From contig JAEEIU010000038.1 in NCBI GenBank assembly GCA_016281495.1, positions 62,001-126,000 of the forward strand: a DNA stretch of 64,000 bases. Reading direction: 5' to 3'. The notes beneath the pieces were generated by a model, which ran no database searches, was not told the origin of the DNA, and worked only from the letters and a program-made list of their open reading frames with translations. The position numbers and the translations under genes were made by a program. Positions 50,860 through 58,353 of this stretch are shown here, in pieces. Positions within the stretch are counted from its first letter, which is position 1, and every line of letters begins with the position of its first letter. Source of the stretch: Treponema sp. (GTDB lineage Bacteria; Spirochaetota; Spirochaetia; Treponematales; Treponemataceae).

Positions 50860-52053
50860 CTACAGAGTAGTTAAAAAGGGATTCAGGAAGAGAAGTCCTT
50901 TCTCCGTCAAGGAATAGTCATTTCCCGATGTTTTTGCCATTCCGCGCTTTACATAATCATGCCACAGCCCGTCATCCACTCCCAGCCTCGCAGACAAATC
51001 ACCATTCCATTTGAGGCCGGAAAAGCGCTTTTTATAGTCAAGAGAATTGATTCCCGCAAGCGTCCGCAACCCCATCATGATATACTCAAATTCCTCGATC
51101 TCCAAAGGCAAAAGTTCTTTTTCCCTCGGTATGGCTTCCCCTGTAATTGAGTTTCCTGTCCAAAAACCGCAATATTGCTTAATGTCCCTGGTATTTGTAT
51201 AGCGGAATCCTCCACTGGCTGAAAAATCATAAATTGAGCCTGTTGCCCCTGCTCCGATTCCAATATAATCATCCTGCTTCCAGTAAGTCATGTTATGGAT
51301 GCTCTCATGACCTGGTTTTGCAAAATTCGAAACCTCATACTGCACGTAGCCCTTCTCATTAAGGATTGCCCGTCCATTCATCCATTGGCGGTCAGCATCA
51401 TCCGGATTCCATTCCTCGCCTGACTCAATGCGCTTTGCAAGAGGTGTATCCTCTTCCACTGTAAGAGTATAAAGGGAAACATGCTGCGGCTCCCAATTCA
51501 ATATCCCGTACAAGGATTCCTCAAATTCCCTGGCAGAAATGCCTCCAAGCCCTGCTATTACATCCAGATTAAGATCTCGTTTCCACACAGTTTTTACAAG
51601 ATCAAGCGCTTTCATGCAGGTTTTTACGTCACAATGCCTGTTCACGTTTCTGAGGGCTTTTTCATTAAAGGACTGTATTCCAAGAGAGAGCCTGTCAACC
51701 CCCAAACCAGTCATTACGTCAAGATGTTTCCTGCAAAGGGTCTCTGGGTTCATCTCCACGGTTATTTCCAGAGGATCTGTACTGGGGAAAAGATGTTTCA
51801 ACCCTTGTAAAAGCCTTTCAAGCTGGGAAGGAGACAAAAGGCTTGGTGTTCCTCCACCGATATAAATAGTTTTCCACCCGCTTACAGGCTTTAGAGAGGA
51901 ATAAAATGAGCTGTAATAGGCCGCTTCCGCCAGCAATGCGTCAATATATCCATCATCTATCCCTTTCATACAGGGAACAGAGAAAAAATCGCAATAATCA
52001 CACTTTGCCGTACAAAAAGGCACATGAACGTATAAAGAGACGCTGTCCTGCAT
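50860..52053 (-). CDS. hemW: radical SAM heme-related protein HemW
   Basis: 397 residues with the radical SAM cluster motif FCTAKCDYCDFF near the N-terminus, VDRLSLGIQSFNEKALR, and the HemW-type GAGATGSIYD and C-terminal winged-helix region. The HemN-specific N-terminal extension is absent, so HemW, a heme carrier, fits better than coproporphyrinogen dehydrogenase. It lies six bases after lepB and forms an operon with it. No other heme gene is seen. Confidence 0.88.
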   Translation of the reverse strand: MQDSVSLYVHVPFCTAKCDYCDFFSVPCMKGIDDGYIDALLAEAAYYSSFYSSLKPVSGWKTIYIGGGTPSLLSPSQLERLLQGLKHLFPSTDPLEITVEMNPETLCRKHLDVMTGLGVDRLSLGIQSFNEKALRNVNRHCDVKTCMKALDLVKTVWKRDLNLDVIAGLGGISAREFEESLYGILNWEPQHVSLYTLTVEEDTPLAKRIESGEEWNPDDADRQWMNGRAILNEKGYVQYEVSNFAKPGHESIHNMTYWKQDDYIGIGAGATGSIYDFSASGGFRYTNTRDIKQYCGFWTGNSITGEAIPREKELLPLEIEEFEYIMMGLRTLAGINSLDYKKRFSGLKWNGDLSARLGVDDGLWHDYVKRGMAKTSGNDYSLTEKGLLFLNPFLTTL

Positions 52054-52059
52054 AAAGTA

Positions 52060-52755
52060 CTAGAAAAGCCGGAATTTGTTGAACGGGAAGTATTCCATGA
52101 CGACCTTACCCCTTATGCGTTCTGCGGGAATGTTTCCCCAAAGCCTTGAATCCAGGGCTTCTATGCGGTTGTCGGCAAGAACAAAATACTCATCCTCACC
52201 CAGAGTAACAGGCTCCATGTTTCCGGTAGAACCAAGACCGTCCCATTCCACTGGCACGGAATAAATCTGAATGCCATATTCTTTTTCTGCCATCTCGAAT
52301 TCCGACAGATAAAGGCTCTTGTCCTCAGGCTTTACAAAAAGCATGTAGTCCTTCATGTAGATTGTGTCACCGGGGATTCCCATAACCCTGCGTACGGCCG
52401 GCTGTCCCGTAAGGCGATCGGTATGACCAAAGGGTTCAATCTGCTGAAAGGTGAAAAATGCCACAATTTTGTTCATTACAGAAAGAGGAGCGGACTGTTT
52501 TTCATCGTCGAGTCTGGAAAGATATACAAGGTCCCCACGTTTCGGGCTGCGGAAAAGCGGACTGACAAAAACCGCACTGTTCTTGGTTAGATCAGGAACC
52601 ATTGAATCCGAGCGGATAAAAACAGGAAAAAGTACCCAATTGCAGACAAGAGTAAGCAAAACAACCAATATGCCTGTTACTGTAAGCGTTGTAGTAACAG
52701 TTTTCTTCCGAGACCTACGTAATTCAAAGGAATAATCGTATACATTTTGTTTCAT
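52060..52755 (-). CDS. lepB: signal peptidase I with Arg at the catalytic Lys position
   Basis: Type I signal peptidase at the inner membrane, 231 residues. One N-terminal helix (about 20-42), box B with the nucleophile S51 in IRSDSMVPDL, box C region RSPKRGDLVY, box D VRRVMGIPGDTIYMKD, and box E YFVLADNRIEALDSRLWG. In box D the general-base Lys of the bacterial family (KR-x-x-G-x-PGD) is replaced by Arg (R122, codon CGC). All other boxes are intact. This could be a variant enzyme, an inactive paralogue, or one in which another Lys serves. A second lepB elsewhere cannot be excluded. Confidence 0.88.
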   Translation of the reverse strand: MKQNVYDYSFELRRSRKKTVTTTLTVTGILVVLLTLVCNWVLFPVFIRSDSMVPDLTKNSAVFVSPLFRSPKRGDLVYLSRLDDEKQSAPLSVMNKIVAFFTFQQIEPFGHTDRLTGQPAVRRVMGIPGDTIYMKDYMLFVKPEDKSLYLSEFEMAEKEYGIQIYSVPVEWDGLGSTGNMEPVTLGEDEYFVLADNRIEALDSRLWGNIPAERIRGKVVMEYFPFNKFRLF

Positions 52756-52849
52756 TGTAACCTTATACTATCACATAGGTTAAATGGTTGCAAGGTTATT
52801 TTAAAGAATAACTCTAGACTTTTAGCCGATAAGAAGTTATAGTAGAATG

Positions 52850-53314
52850 ATGGATGGAAGTCGAAAGATTATTGCACAGAACAAGAAGGCATACTTCAAC
52901 TACGGCATAGAAGATAAACTGGAGTGCGGAATCGTCCTGCAGGGAACGGAGGTAAAATCTGTAAAGGCCGGTTCAATTTCCTTCGCAGACAGTTTTGCCT
53001 TGATAGAGAAAGGTGAAGTTTGGGTGCAGAATATGCAGATAGCGGAATATTCATATTCTTCCATCTTCAACCATAACCCTGACCGCAAGAAAAAGCTGTT
53101 ATTGCACAGGGACCAGATAAAGAGGCTTCAGCGCAAGGTCGATGAAAAAGGCTATACGCTGATTCCGTTGGACATTTACCTTACAGGAGGGCGTGTCAAG
53201 CTGACACTTGGCGTGTGTAAGGGTAAAAAGCAATATGATAAACGGGCAAGCATCCGTGAGCGTGACGTGTCAAGGGATATGGCAAGGGAGTTCAGGAAAG
53301 GCTTGCAAGGATGA
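52850..53314 (+). CDS. smpB: SsrA-binding protein SmpB
   Basis: Delivers tmRNA to stalled ribosomes. The OB-fold core is clear: KKAYFNYGIEDKLECGIVLQGTEVKSVKAGSISF in two adjacent strands, HNPDRKKKLLLHRDQIKRL, then LGVCKGKKQYDKRASIRERD, where the C-terminal tail begins. 154 residues. Two adjacent ATGs (52847 and 52850) are possible; TATAGT (52838-52843) would make 52850 the likely first base of the mRNA. No clear Shine-Dalgarno. The secreted-protein gene follows after nine bases. Confidence 0.94.
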   Translation: MDGSRKIIAQNKKAYFNYGIEDKLECGIVLQGTEVKSVKAGSISFADSFALIEKGEVWVQNMQIAEYSYSSIFNHNPDRKKKLLLHRDQIKRLQRKVDEKGYTLIPLDIYLTGGRVKLTLGVCKGKKQYDKRASIRERDVSRDMAREFRKGLQG

Positions 53315-55215: not shown

Positions 55216-55371
55216 GATAAATCTATTATCGGCATCAAAAATCAATTCATAAAAAAAACACATGAAAATCCCCATAAAAAAATAAACTATGGAAATTTCA
55301 TAAAAATGCCGATAAAATAATGTATGTTGTATATAAACAGCGTCGCATAAATAAGCAAGGTGGTGAGATTT

Positions 55372-58353
55372 ATGGAAAATACTTCTGACACTCAAGATGA
55401 ACTTGACCAGTTTGGCGTATGGGTCAAAACACCTCCACAGGATGCAGCAGAAGAAGTGGCAAAAACAGAAAGTCCAGCTCCTGACTCAGAAAAAAAGGCA
55501 GATGAAGAAGTCTCCTTGGATTCTCTTGCTGATGGAGAAGTTTCCCTTGATGAATTCCTTACAGAGTCAGATACATCACAAGGCAATGAAATAGACGTAA
55601 GCGCTTTTTTCGGAGAAGACTCTGACGAAGGTAGCGGAGACAAGAATTTCCAGCCTGATGGAGAAATATCACTTGACGCATTCCTTGATGAAGCAGATTT
55701 AGGCGGTGATACTCAAGAAGCAAATCAGGAAAACTATGATGTCCCGCTTGACATAGACCTTTCTTTTGATGAAACCATGCCAGAGGTATCTGAGGATGAG
55801 TCAGATTATTCCAGCGACGACATAGACCTTGACTCGTTTATGTCAGATGAGAATGAAACAGCACAAGATTCAGGCAGCACCACAGGAGACGAAATAATCG
55901 ACAATTTTGATGAGATGTTCGACAACATAGAGGATACAGCTCCAAAAGCAGAAGAAAAAACTGAATTACCCGCAGCAGACACAGAAAGCGTTGATCTTTC
56001 CGAATTCGGCGTTACTGGCGAAGATTTGGAAGCTCCTGCCATAGATAACAGCAATTCAGAGAAAAAGGAACAGCAGGACTTTAACCTCAATGTTGATGAA
56101 GAGGGATTTGACTCAAGTTCAGAGTCAGTTGGCGGTGAATCTGCAGACGAGGATATCTCAATCAATATGGAAAACAAGGAAGACAATGGCGGATCCCTTG
56201 AACCAGATGAGAAGAATCCATATTCGGCTCCGGATGATGATTTTGATATTGACGGGCTGCTCAACTCTATCGAGGATGAGACTGACACTGCAAAATCAGA
56301 AACAGTCATACCTGTCAAAAAAAATGATGACACTACTTTGCCTCAAAATGACAATGAGGAAACACAGATAATCGTAACCGACCCCGAAGACGACGGAGTT
56401 TCAATGTCAATACCAGAAAATGCCGTTGAAAGCGAGGAAGTTGCGGATTACAAGGAATCAGTCTCAATCGAGGCAACAGAGGAGCCTGCTGTTAATGCTC
56501 CAGATATCTTCAGCACGGATTCTGATGATGCAGTAGATATCTTCTCAAGCAATGATGACACAGAGAAGGAAACCCAAGCCATTGAAAGCCAGGAAACCTC
56601 AGTTGAAACTGAACAAGTATCAGAGCCTTCTGCCGAACAGGAAGTTCCTGCAGAAACAGAGACCGAAAACTTTTCTGTTGATGATTTCATGGGTGAAGAA
56701 GGATTTTCTGATCCGTCAATTGCAGAAGGAAACCGCTCCTACTCTCCTGAAGAACTTGAGGAACAAAAAAGACTTGAGGAAAACAAAGCTGTAGAAGAAG
56801 TTAACGACTTTGCAGGTGAAGTTGACAAGGAAAATGCTCAGATTGAAGAAAATTCTGAGGCAAATTATGACAATCTTGTCAATCAGCTTGAAGAAGAGAT
56901 GGAACACATTGACCTGGACGGCGACGGAGAGGATGATACCGAGCTTATAATAGACGCCTCTGAGGGTGAGACAAGCAATGAAGACCTTGAGGATGAGGAT
57001 TTCATGCCAAATCCATTCTATACCCCGCTAGTTGAGGAAGAAGGGTCAAATACACCTCATGTAGAGCCTGAAACAGAAGATGAAGCACCTGTTTCTGAAG
57101 ATTTTGAAGAAAATTCAAAAGAAATAGTTGCAGAAAATGAAAATAAGAGTAATAATAGTATATTAGCAGAGGAAGATGTTTCTGCCGTAAATGAATTTGA
57201 AGCAGGTCAAACTCTTGTCGATGCTACAGACAATGTACAGGAACCGGTTCTTTCTGAACAGGATCAAGTACAATATGACGAAGATTCGCAATCAAAATAT
57301 ATTTCAGATTCTGCAGGGGATGACATGGACAGTAATTACACAAGTACTCGAGATGATGTACAGGACAGTCTGATGAATCAGATTGCCACAGAACTTTCTA
57401 CACTAAAAGAAGAGATTAAAGAGCTCAAACTTGAATTTGACGAATTACGTAAAAACGGGTTTAGCTCTGGGTCAGAAGATGGCTCATCAAACTCAATTCC
57501 TGCCCCTGAAGCTGAGACAGGATTCTTCGGAGATGAGGATGATGACGATACAATCGCCCTTAGCGGTGATGAGCTCAGCAATATTCTTAGCAGTGCAGAG
57601 TTCACGGCCCAGAATGATGCAAATGATACCAATATCCTTGGCTCAATAGATGAAATGCCTGATGTTCCTGATCAGGATTATGCAAATGCACAGAACGGCC
57701 TTTCAATGGAGTATTCAGAGGATAATCTACAGGAACCTGACCTTAATTCTGTAGACATCAGCTCAGAGGACCTTACCCTTCCAGAAGAGATTTCCGTACC
57801 AAAGAGCGATGACGTTCTTGTTGAGTCCTCAGATTCAGATGAAACCGAGCCACTTGACAAAGAGGTTGACAACAGTATAACCGAAGATAATTTTGAATAT
57901 CTTTCAGAGGATCCAAACTCTGCCACACCGGAAGATGAGAATATTGAAACCGGCATTTCAGAGGAGCCTGTAAGAACAGTATTCAACGACTGGCAGAATC
58001 CTAATGAGGATGCCACATCTTTTGATGAGACAGAAACATCAAATGAAGAAGAACCTGCAATAGAAGAACCAATTCTTGATGATACTTCATTCGATCAGCC
58101 TGCATCAGATTCCATCGTTGATCTTTCCCAGGAAGAGGATGCCATGGAAGAGATTCAGGAACCGTCTGCCGCCACCGAATCTGCAGGAAGCATCAGTTCT
58201 ATACCAGAAGACATGAAACAGGAAATCAAGTCAGTTCTTTCCTACATGGATCAGCTGCTTGAAAGCCTCCCGGAAGATAAGATTGAAGAATTCGCACGTT
58301 CAGAACAGTTTGCGACATATAAAAAACTGTTCAACGAGCTTGGACTTTCTTGA
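55372..58353 (+). CDS. very acidic repeat protein, 993 residues, function unknown
   Basis: Starts at ATG 55372 behind AAGGTGG. The product is mostly disordered and rich in Glu, Asp, Ser and Thr, without signal peptide or membrane helix. Short motifs of the form E-V/I-S/D-L/I-D-x-F/L recur: EVSLDSL (46-52), EVSLDEFL (56-63), EIDVSAFF (73-80), EISLDAFL (98-105), DIDLDSFM (150-157), later VDLSEF, FDIDGLL, FSVDDFM and ALSGDEL. Near 670-700 is a coiled coil (LSTLKEEIKELKLEFDELRK), and the last 55 residues fold into helices (MKQEIKSVLSYMDQLLESLP). This is the plan of a multivalent scaffold. A terminator follows just before the first maf gene. Confidence 0.85.
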   Translation: MENTSDTQDELDQFGVWVKTPPQDAAEEVAKTESPAPDSEKKADEEVSLDSLADGEVSLDEFLTESDTSQGNEIDVSAFFGEDSDEGSGDKNFQPDGEISLDAFLDEADLGGDTQEANQENYDVPLDIDLSFDETMPEVSEDESDYSSDDIDLDSFMSDENETAQDSGSTTGDEIIDNFDEMFDNIEDTAPKAEEKTELPAADTESVDLSEFGVTGEDLEAPAIDNSNSEKKEQQDFNLNVDEEGFDSSSESVGGESADEDISINMENKEDNGGSLEPDEKNPYSAPDDDFDIDGLLNSIEDETDTAKSETVIPVKKNDDTTLPQNDNEETQIIVTDPEDDGVSMSIPENAVESEEVADYKESVSIEATEEPAVNAPDIFSTDSDDAVDIFSSNDDTEKETQAIESQETSVETEQVSEPSAEQEVPAETETENFSVDDFMGEEGFSDPSIAEGNRSYSPEELEEQKRLEENKAVEEVNDFAGEVDKENAQIEENSEANYDNLVNQLEEEMEHIDLDGDGEDDTELIIDASEGETSNEDLEDEDFMPNPFYTPLVEEEGSNTPHVEPETEDEAPVSEDFEENSKEIVAENENKSNNSILAEEDVSAVNEFEAGQTLVDATDNVQEPVLSEQDQVQYDEDSQSKYISDSAGDDMDSNYTSTRDDVQDSLMNQIATELSTLKEEIKELKLEFDELRKNGFSSGSEDGSSNSIPAPEAETGFFGDEDDDDTIALSGDELSNILSSAEFTAQNDANDTNILGSIDEMPDVPDQDYANAQNGLSMEYSEDNLQEPDLNSVDISSEDLTLPEEISVPKSDDVLVESSDSDETEPLDKEVDNSITEDNFEYLSEDPNSATPEDENIETGISEEPVRTVFNDWQNPNEDATSFDETETSNEEEPAIEEPILDDTSFDQPASDSIVDLSQEEDAMEEIQEPSAATESAGSISSIPEDMKQEIKSVLSYMDQLLESLPEDKIEEFARSEQFATYKKLFNELGLS

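What the first reader, a model, noticed from the sequence alone, without database searches (positions are those of the whole stretch)
52060..52755. Signal peptidase I with Lys-to-Arg change at the catalytic base
Box D reads VRRVMGIPGD where the bacterial family has V-K-R-x-x-G-x-PGD; the base codon is CGC. The Ser nucleophile S51 and boxes C and E are intact. Arg is a very poor general base, so either the mechanism differs, another residue acts, or another signal peptidase does the work and this is a variant.
Basis: partly seen in the sequence, partly recalled or inferred. Interest (0 to 1): 0.62.

Follow-up and report, generated by a model that had tools for sequence, protein, structure and literature searches.

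The report
Dead signal peptidase kept by spirochaetes
This gene looks like the enzyme that trims export tags off bacterial proteins, but in treponemes and relatives its cutting residues have been lost again and again while the protein is carefully preserved beside a working copy, so it is most likely a retired enzyme kept for a non-cutting job.

Summary
The Lys-to-Arg change is real. The ORF is on the MINUS strand (52755..52060): 231 aa, S51 intact, R122 (CGC, 52390-52392) where type I signal peptidases have the catalytic Lys. It is not an error or a single-strain quirk. In 79 non-redundant Treponemataceae orthologues the base is never Lys (Arg in 71), and the Ser nucleophile itself is replaced (T/A/V/D/G) in 22. 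Box E is not fully intact: the equivalents of E. coli Gly272 and Ser278 are Ala here and variable in the family. Residues that hold the fold are invariant, dN/dS is 0.03-0.18, and AlphaFold gives a signal peptidase fold (Z 17.8 to E. coli LepB). A canonical Ser/Lys LepB of about 600 aa is encoded elsewhere in the genome. Across the phylum the gene sits in a conserved smpB-(lepB)-THIS-hemW locus, often directly behind an intact lepB. Many outgroup copies keep Ser/Lys, so an active second signal peptidase decayed repeatedly. Best reading: a pseudo-signal-peptidase with a non-catalytic export role, analogous to S. aureus SpsA and S. pyogenes SipA. This is a new variant of a known kind. Arg-based catalysis is unlikely. 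Its actual job is untested.

The parts
52060..52755 (-). Pseudo-signal-peptidase ORF, 231 aa (S26 / type I signal peptidase family)
   Evidence: AlphaFold2 mean pLDDT 86.2; Z 17.8 to E. coli signal peptidase I
52630..52701 (-). Single N-terminal membrane anchor (about residues 19-42) directly before box B
   Evidence: hydrophobic stretch; helix 10-40
52603..52605 (-). Ser51, position of the catalytic Ser (E. coli Ser90); present here, but T/A/V/D/G in 22 of 79 family members
52528..52542 (-). Box C, KRGDL (residues 72-76)
52390..52392 (-). Arg122 (CGC), position of the catalytic general base Lys (E. coli Lys145); never Lys in 79 Treponemataceae orthologues
52174..52176 (-). Ala194, position of invariant Gly272 next to the catalytic Lys in E. 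coli
   Evidence: role of Gly272 from PMC4049620
52156..52158 (-). Ala200, position of Ser278 that assists the catalytic Lys in E. coli
   Evidence: role of Ser278 from general knowledge
50860..52053 (-). hemW-like radical SAM gene directly downstream (6 bases between stop and start), conserved neighbour
52847..53314 (+). smpB, divergent upstream neighbour, conserved

Best explanation
The gene encodes a membrane-anchored type I signal peptidase paralogue that no longer cleaves: a pseudo-signal-peptidase. Shown by sequence and tree: it belongs to a second signal peptidase lineage of spirochaetes, sister to LepB and often encoded directly behind it. That lineage still has Ser/Lys in many outgroups, fixed Lys-to-Arg at the base of Treponemataceae, and loses the Ser nucleophile and the supporting Gly272 and Ser278 positions repeatedly, while fold-holding residues stay under strong purifying selection. 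Signal peptide cleavage is done by the intact 600-aa LepB elsewhere in the genome. Inferred, not shown: the protein keeps a shallow substrate-binding face next to the membrane and acts as a non-catalytic accessory of export, either as a partner or modulator of LepB or as a holder of precursors or specific envelope proteins (as SipA does for pilins), with Arg122 playing a structural, charge-keeping part.
For: Base never Lys in 79 non-redundant Treponemataceae sequences (R 71, Y 3, F 2, S 1, V 1, A 1); nucleophile S 57, T 12, A 5, V 3, D 1, G 1; Gly272 position G in only 15; Ser278 position S in only 24. In 34 LepB controls all four are 34/34. Structural R146, D153, D273, R275, D280, R282 equivalents are 79/79. 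ML trees: the lineage splits from LepB with SH-aLRT 99; parsimony needs 19-20 changes of the nucleophile (11 even if Thr counts as Ser) and 3-6 of the base, none among LepBs. Intact Ser/Lys LepB in the own genome and in every Treponemataceae LepB read (14 of 14). dN/dS 0.03-0.18 in 40 close pairs. Conserved locus smpB-(lepB)-gene-hemW across the phylum. SPase fold. Precedents: SipA lacks Ser/Lys and Gly272 yet is essential for pilus polymerisation (PMC4049620); SpsA is inactive (PMC12445088); 186 CI, in the same superfamily, has Arg152 at the base position (PMC12984324).
Against: No activity or interaction data. The window protein itself still has Ser51, and Ser remains the majority nucleophile (57/79), as does Ser49 (63/79), so residual activity in some species cannot be ruled out. 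Arg is strongly kept (71/79), more than mere decay would predict. No binding partner is identified, and the LepB-partner idea is weakened by Treponemataceae having separated lepB from this locus.
Confidence: 0.74

Rival explanations
1. An active signal peptidase in which Arg122 replaces Lys as general base (a Ser-Arg dyad), perhaps slow or working at high pH.
For: Arg is the most frequent replacement: 71/79 in Treponemataceae, and it recurs in scattered outgroup copies (L153, L189, L190, L209, L210). Ser51 is present in the window protein and in 57/79 relatives.
Against: Ser is lost in 18 of the 71 Arg-bearing sequences (T/R 10, A/R 5, V/R 3). Gly272 and Ser278, which make room for and support the base, are also lost. 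Arg (pKa about 12-13) is a very poor base. Arg is a marker of a non-protease in the superfamily member 186 CI (PMC12984324).
Confidence: 0.08
2. A redundant gene in decay (pseudogene on the way out).
For: Catalytic residues are lost many times. A few family-level hits contain in-frame stops (G221, G248).
Against: Near-universal retention in complete genomes, including a 1.1-Mb reduced genome that has only this gene and LepB as S26 proteins. dN/dS 0.03-0.18. Invariant structural residues. Conserved locus.
Confidence: 0.04
3. A specialised active peptidase in those species that keep Ser/Lys (outgroups), and in treponemes an enzyme using another residue as base.
For: 27 of 57 outgroup copies have an intact Ser/Lys dyad, so the lineage began as an enzyme.
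Against: No Lys or His is invariant in Treponemataceae; the only common Lys, K142 (69/79), lies on the strand after box D, not at the active site by alignment. The nucleophile is not conserved either.
Confidence: 0.06
4. A sequencing or assembly error at R122.
For: None.
Against: The same Arg is in about 100 assemblies of many species, including single-contig genomes.
Confidence: 0.005

Closest known systems
Bacterial type I signal peptidase (LepB/SpsB, MEROPS S26A, TIGR02227)
   Same: Fold, single N-terminal anchor before box B, box C RGD, box D xRxxGxPGD, box E DNR..DSRxxG; above the family model's cut-off.
   Different: Catalytic Lys replaced by Arg, Gly272 and Ser278 equivalents replaced by Ala, Pro87 position not kept, nucleophile not conserved in the orthologue family.
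Streptococcus pyogenes SipA (PDB 4n31), signal peptidase-like pilus assembly factor
   Same: SPase fold without the Ser/Lys dyad and without Gly272, kept for a non-peptidase job; Z 15.2 to the model (PMC4049620).
   Different: SipA belongs to pilus gene clusters of Gram-positives; here the locus is smpB-(lepB)-gene-hemW and the immediate neighbours are not pilin or sortase genes. Residues differ (Asp/Gly in SipA, Ser/Arg here).
Staphylococcus aureus SpsA
   Same: An inactive signal peptidase paralogue beside an active one (SpsB) (PMC12445088); adjacency of the two S. aureus genes is from memory. A tandem pair is also seen in many spirochaetes here.
   Different: SpsA is described as dispensable and belongs to one lineage; the spirochaete lineage spans a phylum. 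No sequence comparison with SpsA was run.
Phage 186 CI repressor (LexA/SPase superfamily)
   Same: Arg at the catalytic base position, contacting a main-chain oxygen of the Omega subzone (PMC12984324).
   Different: A soluble DNA-binding repressor; only the fold family is shared.

Membership tests
Type I signal peptidase (S26), as a homologous family | Profile match above curated cut-off | tested here: met
   PF10502 82.2 against 22.9 bits; TIGR02227 79.4 against 47 bits
Type I signal peptidase (S26), as a homologous family | SPase catalytic-domain fold with N-terminal membrane anchor | tested here: met
   AlphaFold2 mean pLDDT 86.2; Z 17.8, rmsd 2.3 over 153 residues to 1t7d
Active type I signal peptidase | Catalytic Ser in box B | tested here: inconclusive
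   Present in the window protein (S51), but replaced in 22 of 79 Treponemataceae orthologues
Active type I signal peptidase | Catalytic Lys in box D | tested here: not met
   R122; 0 of 79 orthologues have Lys, 34 of 34 LepB controls do
Active type I signal peptidase | Gly272 and Ser278 of box E supporting the Lys | tested here: not met
   Both Ala here; G 15/79 and S 24/79 in the family, 34/34 each in LepB controls
Active type I signal peptidase | Signal peptide cleavage activity | not testable with these tools
   Needs biochemistry
SPase-like pilus assembly factor (SipA) | Encoded in a pilus cluster with pilins and sortase | tested here: not met
   Neighbours are smpB and hemW, with or without lepB
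Inactive SPase paralogue paired with an active one (SpsA-like arrangement) | Active Ser/Lys paralogue present; this copy lacks the dyad | tested here: met
   LepB of 600 aa with SESM and VKRVTGLPGE in the same genome; tandem pair in many relatives. Function of the pairing not tested

The most novel reading that the evidence does not exclude
Spirochaetes run a two-subunit signal peptidase: an active LepB plus this obligate non-catalytic subunit, which presents or gates precursors. The pair started as two active tandem enzymes, and the second decayed catalytically in parallel in many lineages, including (by inference from genome size) the syphilis and Lyme spirochaete lineages, without losing its structural role.
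Probability: 0.22. Interest if true: 0.75.

Novelty: new variant of a known kind. Interest (0 to 1): 0.5.

Why it matters
Automatic family models call this gene 'signal peptidase I' in treponemes (TIGR02227 equivalog, 79 bits against a cut-off of 47). If it is inactive, those calls are misleading: the long LepB would carry the main activity, which matters for export studies and for signal peptidase inhibitors such as arylomycins. The repeated independent loss of a catalytic dyad under strong purifying selection, in a fixed locus across a phylum, is a clean natural series (Ser/Lys, Thr/Lys, Ala/Lys, Ser/Arg, Ala/Arg, Glu/Ala) for asking what a protease is kept for once it stops cutting.

Tried and rejected
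Sequencing error: rejected, since the Arg is in about 100 assemblies. Shifted Lys taking the same place: rejected, no Lys is conserved near box D in 79 sequences. First-pass regular expressions for the boxes missed many members and were replaced by alignment columns. Literature: I found no paper that discusses this paralogue as inactive, only a listing of B. burgdorferi BB0031 as LepB, and no open paper measuring Lys-to-Arg at the SPase base; subscription papers are not in that library. A link between tandem position and dyad loss was looked at by eye and is not clean. The T clade has SH-aLRT 91 in one tree and 58 in the pruned tree, so a single origin of the Arg is likely, not proven. Deep, fast branches (Borrelia-like L206-L208, L209, L210, L197) are of unsure placement.

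Full report
OBSERVATION. The ORF at 52060..52755 is on the minus strand and encodes 231 aa. It is a type I signal peptidase homologue by Pfam (PF10502, E 5.5e-23) and NCBIfam (TIGR02227, E 2.6e-22). Box B is RSDSM (S51), box C KRGD, box D AVRRVMGIPGD and box E ADNRIEALDSRLWG. Against solved signal peptidases, R122 aligns with the catalytic Lys of S. aureus SpsB and of the E. faecalis enzyme. The codon is CGC. Its remark that box E is intact is not: the residues equivalent to E. coli Gly272 and Ser278 are Ala194 and Ala200.

OTHER SIGNAL PEPTIDASES IN THE GENOME. The 3.2-Mb assembly holding the window has at least two further S26 proteins with Ser and Lys. One is a 600-aa LepB with EIPSESMVP, DPLVKRVTGLPGE and GDNRFNSLDMR. 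The other is a 168-aa protein (KVEGVSMEP, LVVKRC) beside a LysM-M23 peptidase gene. A fourth fragment is cut by a contig end. Cleavage capacity therefore need not depend on the window gene.

THE CHANGE IS FAMILY-WIDE AND GOES WITH OTHER LOSSES. A hit was found in 176 of 196 genomes of the genus and 143 of 145 of the family sample (some of the weakest hits are LepB). I read 113 Treponemataceae copies from about 20 genera: none has Lys at the base position. In 79 non-redundant sequences the base is R 71, Y 3, F 2, S 1, V 1, A 1. The nucleophile is S 57, T 12, A 5, V 3, D 1, G 1. The Gly272 position is A 32, C 23, G 15, S 7, N 1, T 1. The Ser278 position is S 24, G 17, A 16, C 9, T 8 and others. 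The residues that hold this part of the fold (R146, D153, D273, R275, D280, R282 in E. coli numbering) are 79 of 79, as are E152, E154 and Y160 of the window protein. In 34 LepB proteins aligned as controls, Ser, Lys, Gly272 and Ser278 are 34 of 34. All 14 long LepBs read from other Treponemataceae genomes also have SESM and a Lys in DPLVK. A degenerate active site in a conserved scaffold is the signature of a pseudoenzyme. It is hard to square with an Arg-based mechanism, because 18 of the 71 Arg-bearing sequences have no Ser (T 10, A 5, V 3).

ORIGIN. With a profile of the family (A1) I followed the gene through the order, class and phylum. In other families it is often the second of two adjacent signal peptidase genes, the first being a canonical LepB of about 330-350 aa. 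The order smpB (divergent), optional lepB, this gene, hemW is kept from the window to distant families, which ties the copies together as one locus. An ML tree of 117 sequences separates this lineage from LepB with SH-aLRT 99. Of 57 outgroup copies, 27 still have Ser/Lys, among them L152 from another family of the same order. Others have T/K, A/K, G/K, S/E, S/V, A/Q, S/Y, T/Y, I/R, V/L or, in the copies that look like Borrelia, E/A and E/S (the identification as Borrelia rests on genome size and contig pattern and is my inference). Some of the deeper outgroup copies lie outside the smpB-hemW locus and may be other paralogues. Parsimony needs at least 19-20 changes between Ser and other residues at the nucleophile and 3-6 between Lys and others at the base, in the pruned and the full tree. 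So the lineage began as an enzyme and its active site was lost many times.

STILL UNDER SELECTION. NG86 dN/dS for 40 close pairs is 0.03-0.18, including the window against L008 and L009 (0.07 and 0.11). A reduced 1.1-Mb genome in the family keeps exactly two S26 genes, the long LepB and this one. This is not a pseudogene.

STRUCTURE. AlphaFold2 with the 36-sequence alignment gives mean pLDDT 86.2 and pTM 0.78, with a long N-terminal helix followed by the signal peptidase beta domain. The best solved relatives are E. coli signal peptidase I (Z 17.8, rmsd 2.3 over 153 residues) and the inactive S. pyogenes SipA (Z 15.2, rmsd 2.4 over 130) (Foldseek agrees). The hydrophobic residue before the base (E. 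coli Ile144) is kept as L/I/V/M/F in 79 of 79. The Pro87 position of the substrate groove is not kept (K, R, Q and others), and Ile86 only partly. A peptide-binding cleft may therefore survive in altered form. That is inference.

MECHANISM PROPOSED. Shown: loss of the dyad and its supporting residues, a retained fold (by prediction), selection, a fixed locus, and an intact LepB in the same genome. Inferred: a membrane-anchored, non-catalytic export accessory. The two concrete options are a partner of LepB (suggested by the tandem genes of relatives) or a holder of particular precursors, as SipA does for pilins. SipA tolerates mutation of its dyad positions and is still essential for pilus polymerisation (PMC4049620). 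S. aureus SpsA is a second inactive example (PMC12445088). The strong retention of Arg needs its own reason. In 186 CI, a protein of the same superfamily, Arg152 at the base position contacts a main-chain oxygen of the Omega subzone (PMC12984324), so a structural, charge-keeping role is plausible.

NOVELTY. Inactive signal peptidase paralogues are known in Gram-positives. A phylum-wide, syntenic lineage in spirochaetes with repeated loss of the dyad is, as far as the searched papers show, undescribed. I call it a new variant of a known kind.

Noticed in passing
L004 (G000:C8:72293-72799, +): A 168-aa S26 protein with Ser and Lys (KVEGVSMEP, LVVKRC) beside a divergent LysM-M23 peptidase gene; possibly a specialised signal peptidase.
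   Followed up: partly
L007 (G000:C8:1-130): C-terminal box E fragment (NRWNSLDSRYKG) of another S26 protein cut off by the contig end.
   Followed up: no
L005 and L212-L226: Treponemal LepBs are about 570-690 aa, with a long extra stretch between box D and box E; the function of the insert is unknown.
   Followed up: no
L218 (G168 LepB): Box D of an otherwise canonical LepB reads DPLVKHVAGLPGEQ, with His instead of the near-invariant Arg after the catalytic Lys.
   Followed up: no
window 52447-52497 (-), residues 87-103 and relatives in A1: A family-wide hydrophobic or amphipathic helix (consensus VxFFTFQxxxPF) after box C, predicted as helix 89-101; it may dip into the membrane or form an interface.
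   Followed up: no
L186, L187, L188 (family f3, genus g28): The copy behind lepB is reduced to about 185-200 aa with boxes D and E barely recognisable, still before hemW; an extreme end of the decay series.
   Followed up: partly
L201, L202, L211 (family f19, genus g61): A signal peptidase homologue with Thr at the nucleophile and intact Lys (SSTMMNT, IKRVIGLPNE), without smpB or hemW found beside it in the stretch read; hits in related genomes of the genus show in-frame stops.
   Followed up: no
window 55360-58353 (+): A 997-aa very acidic, low-complexity protein (rich in D/E/S) of unknown role near the locus.
   Followed up: no
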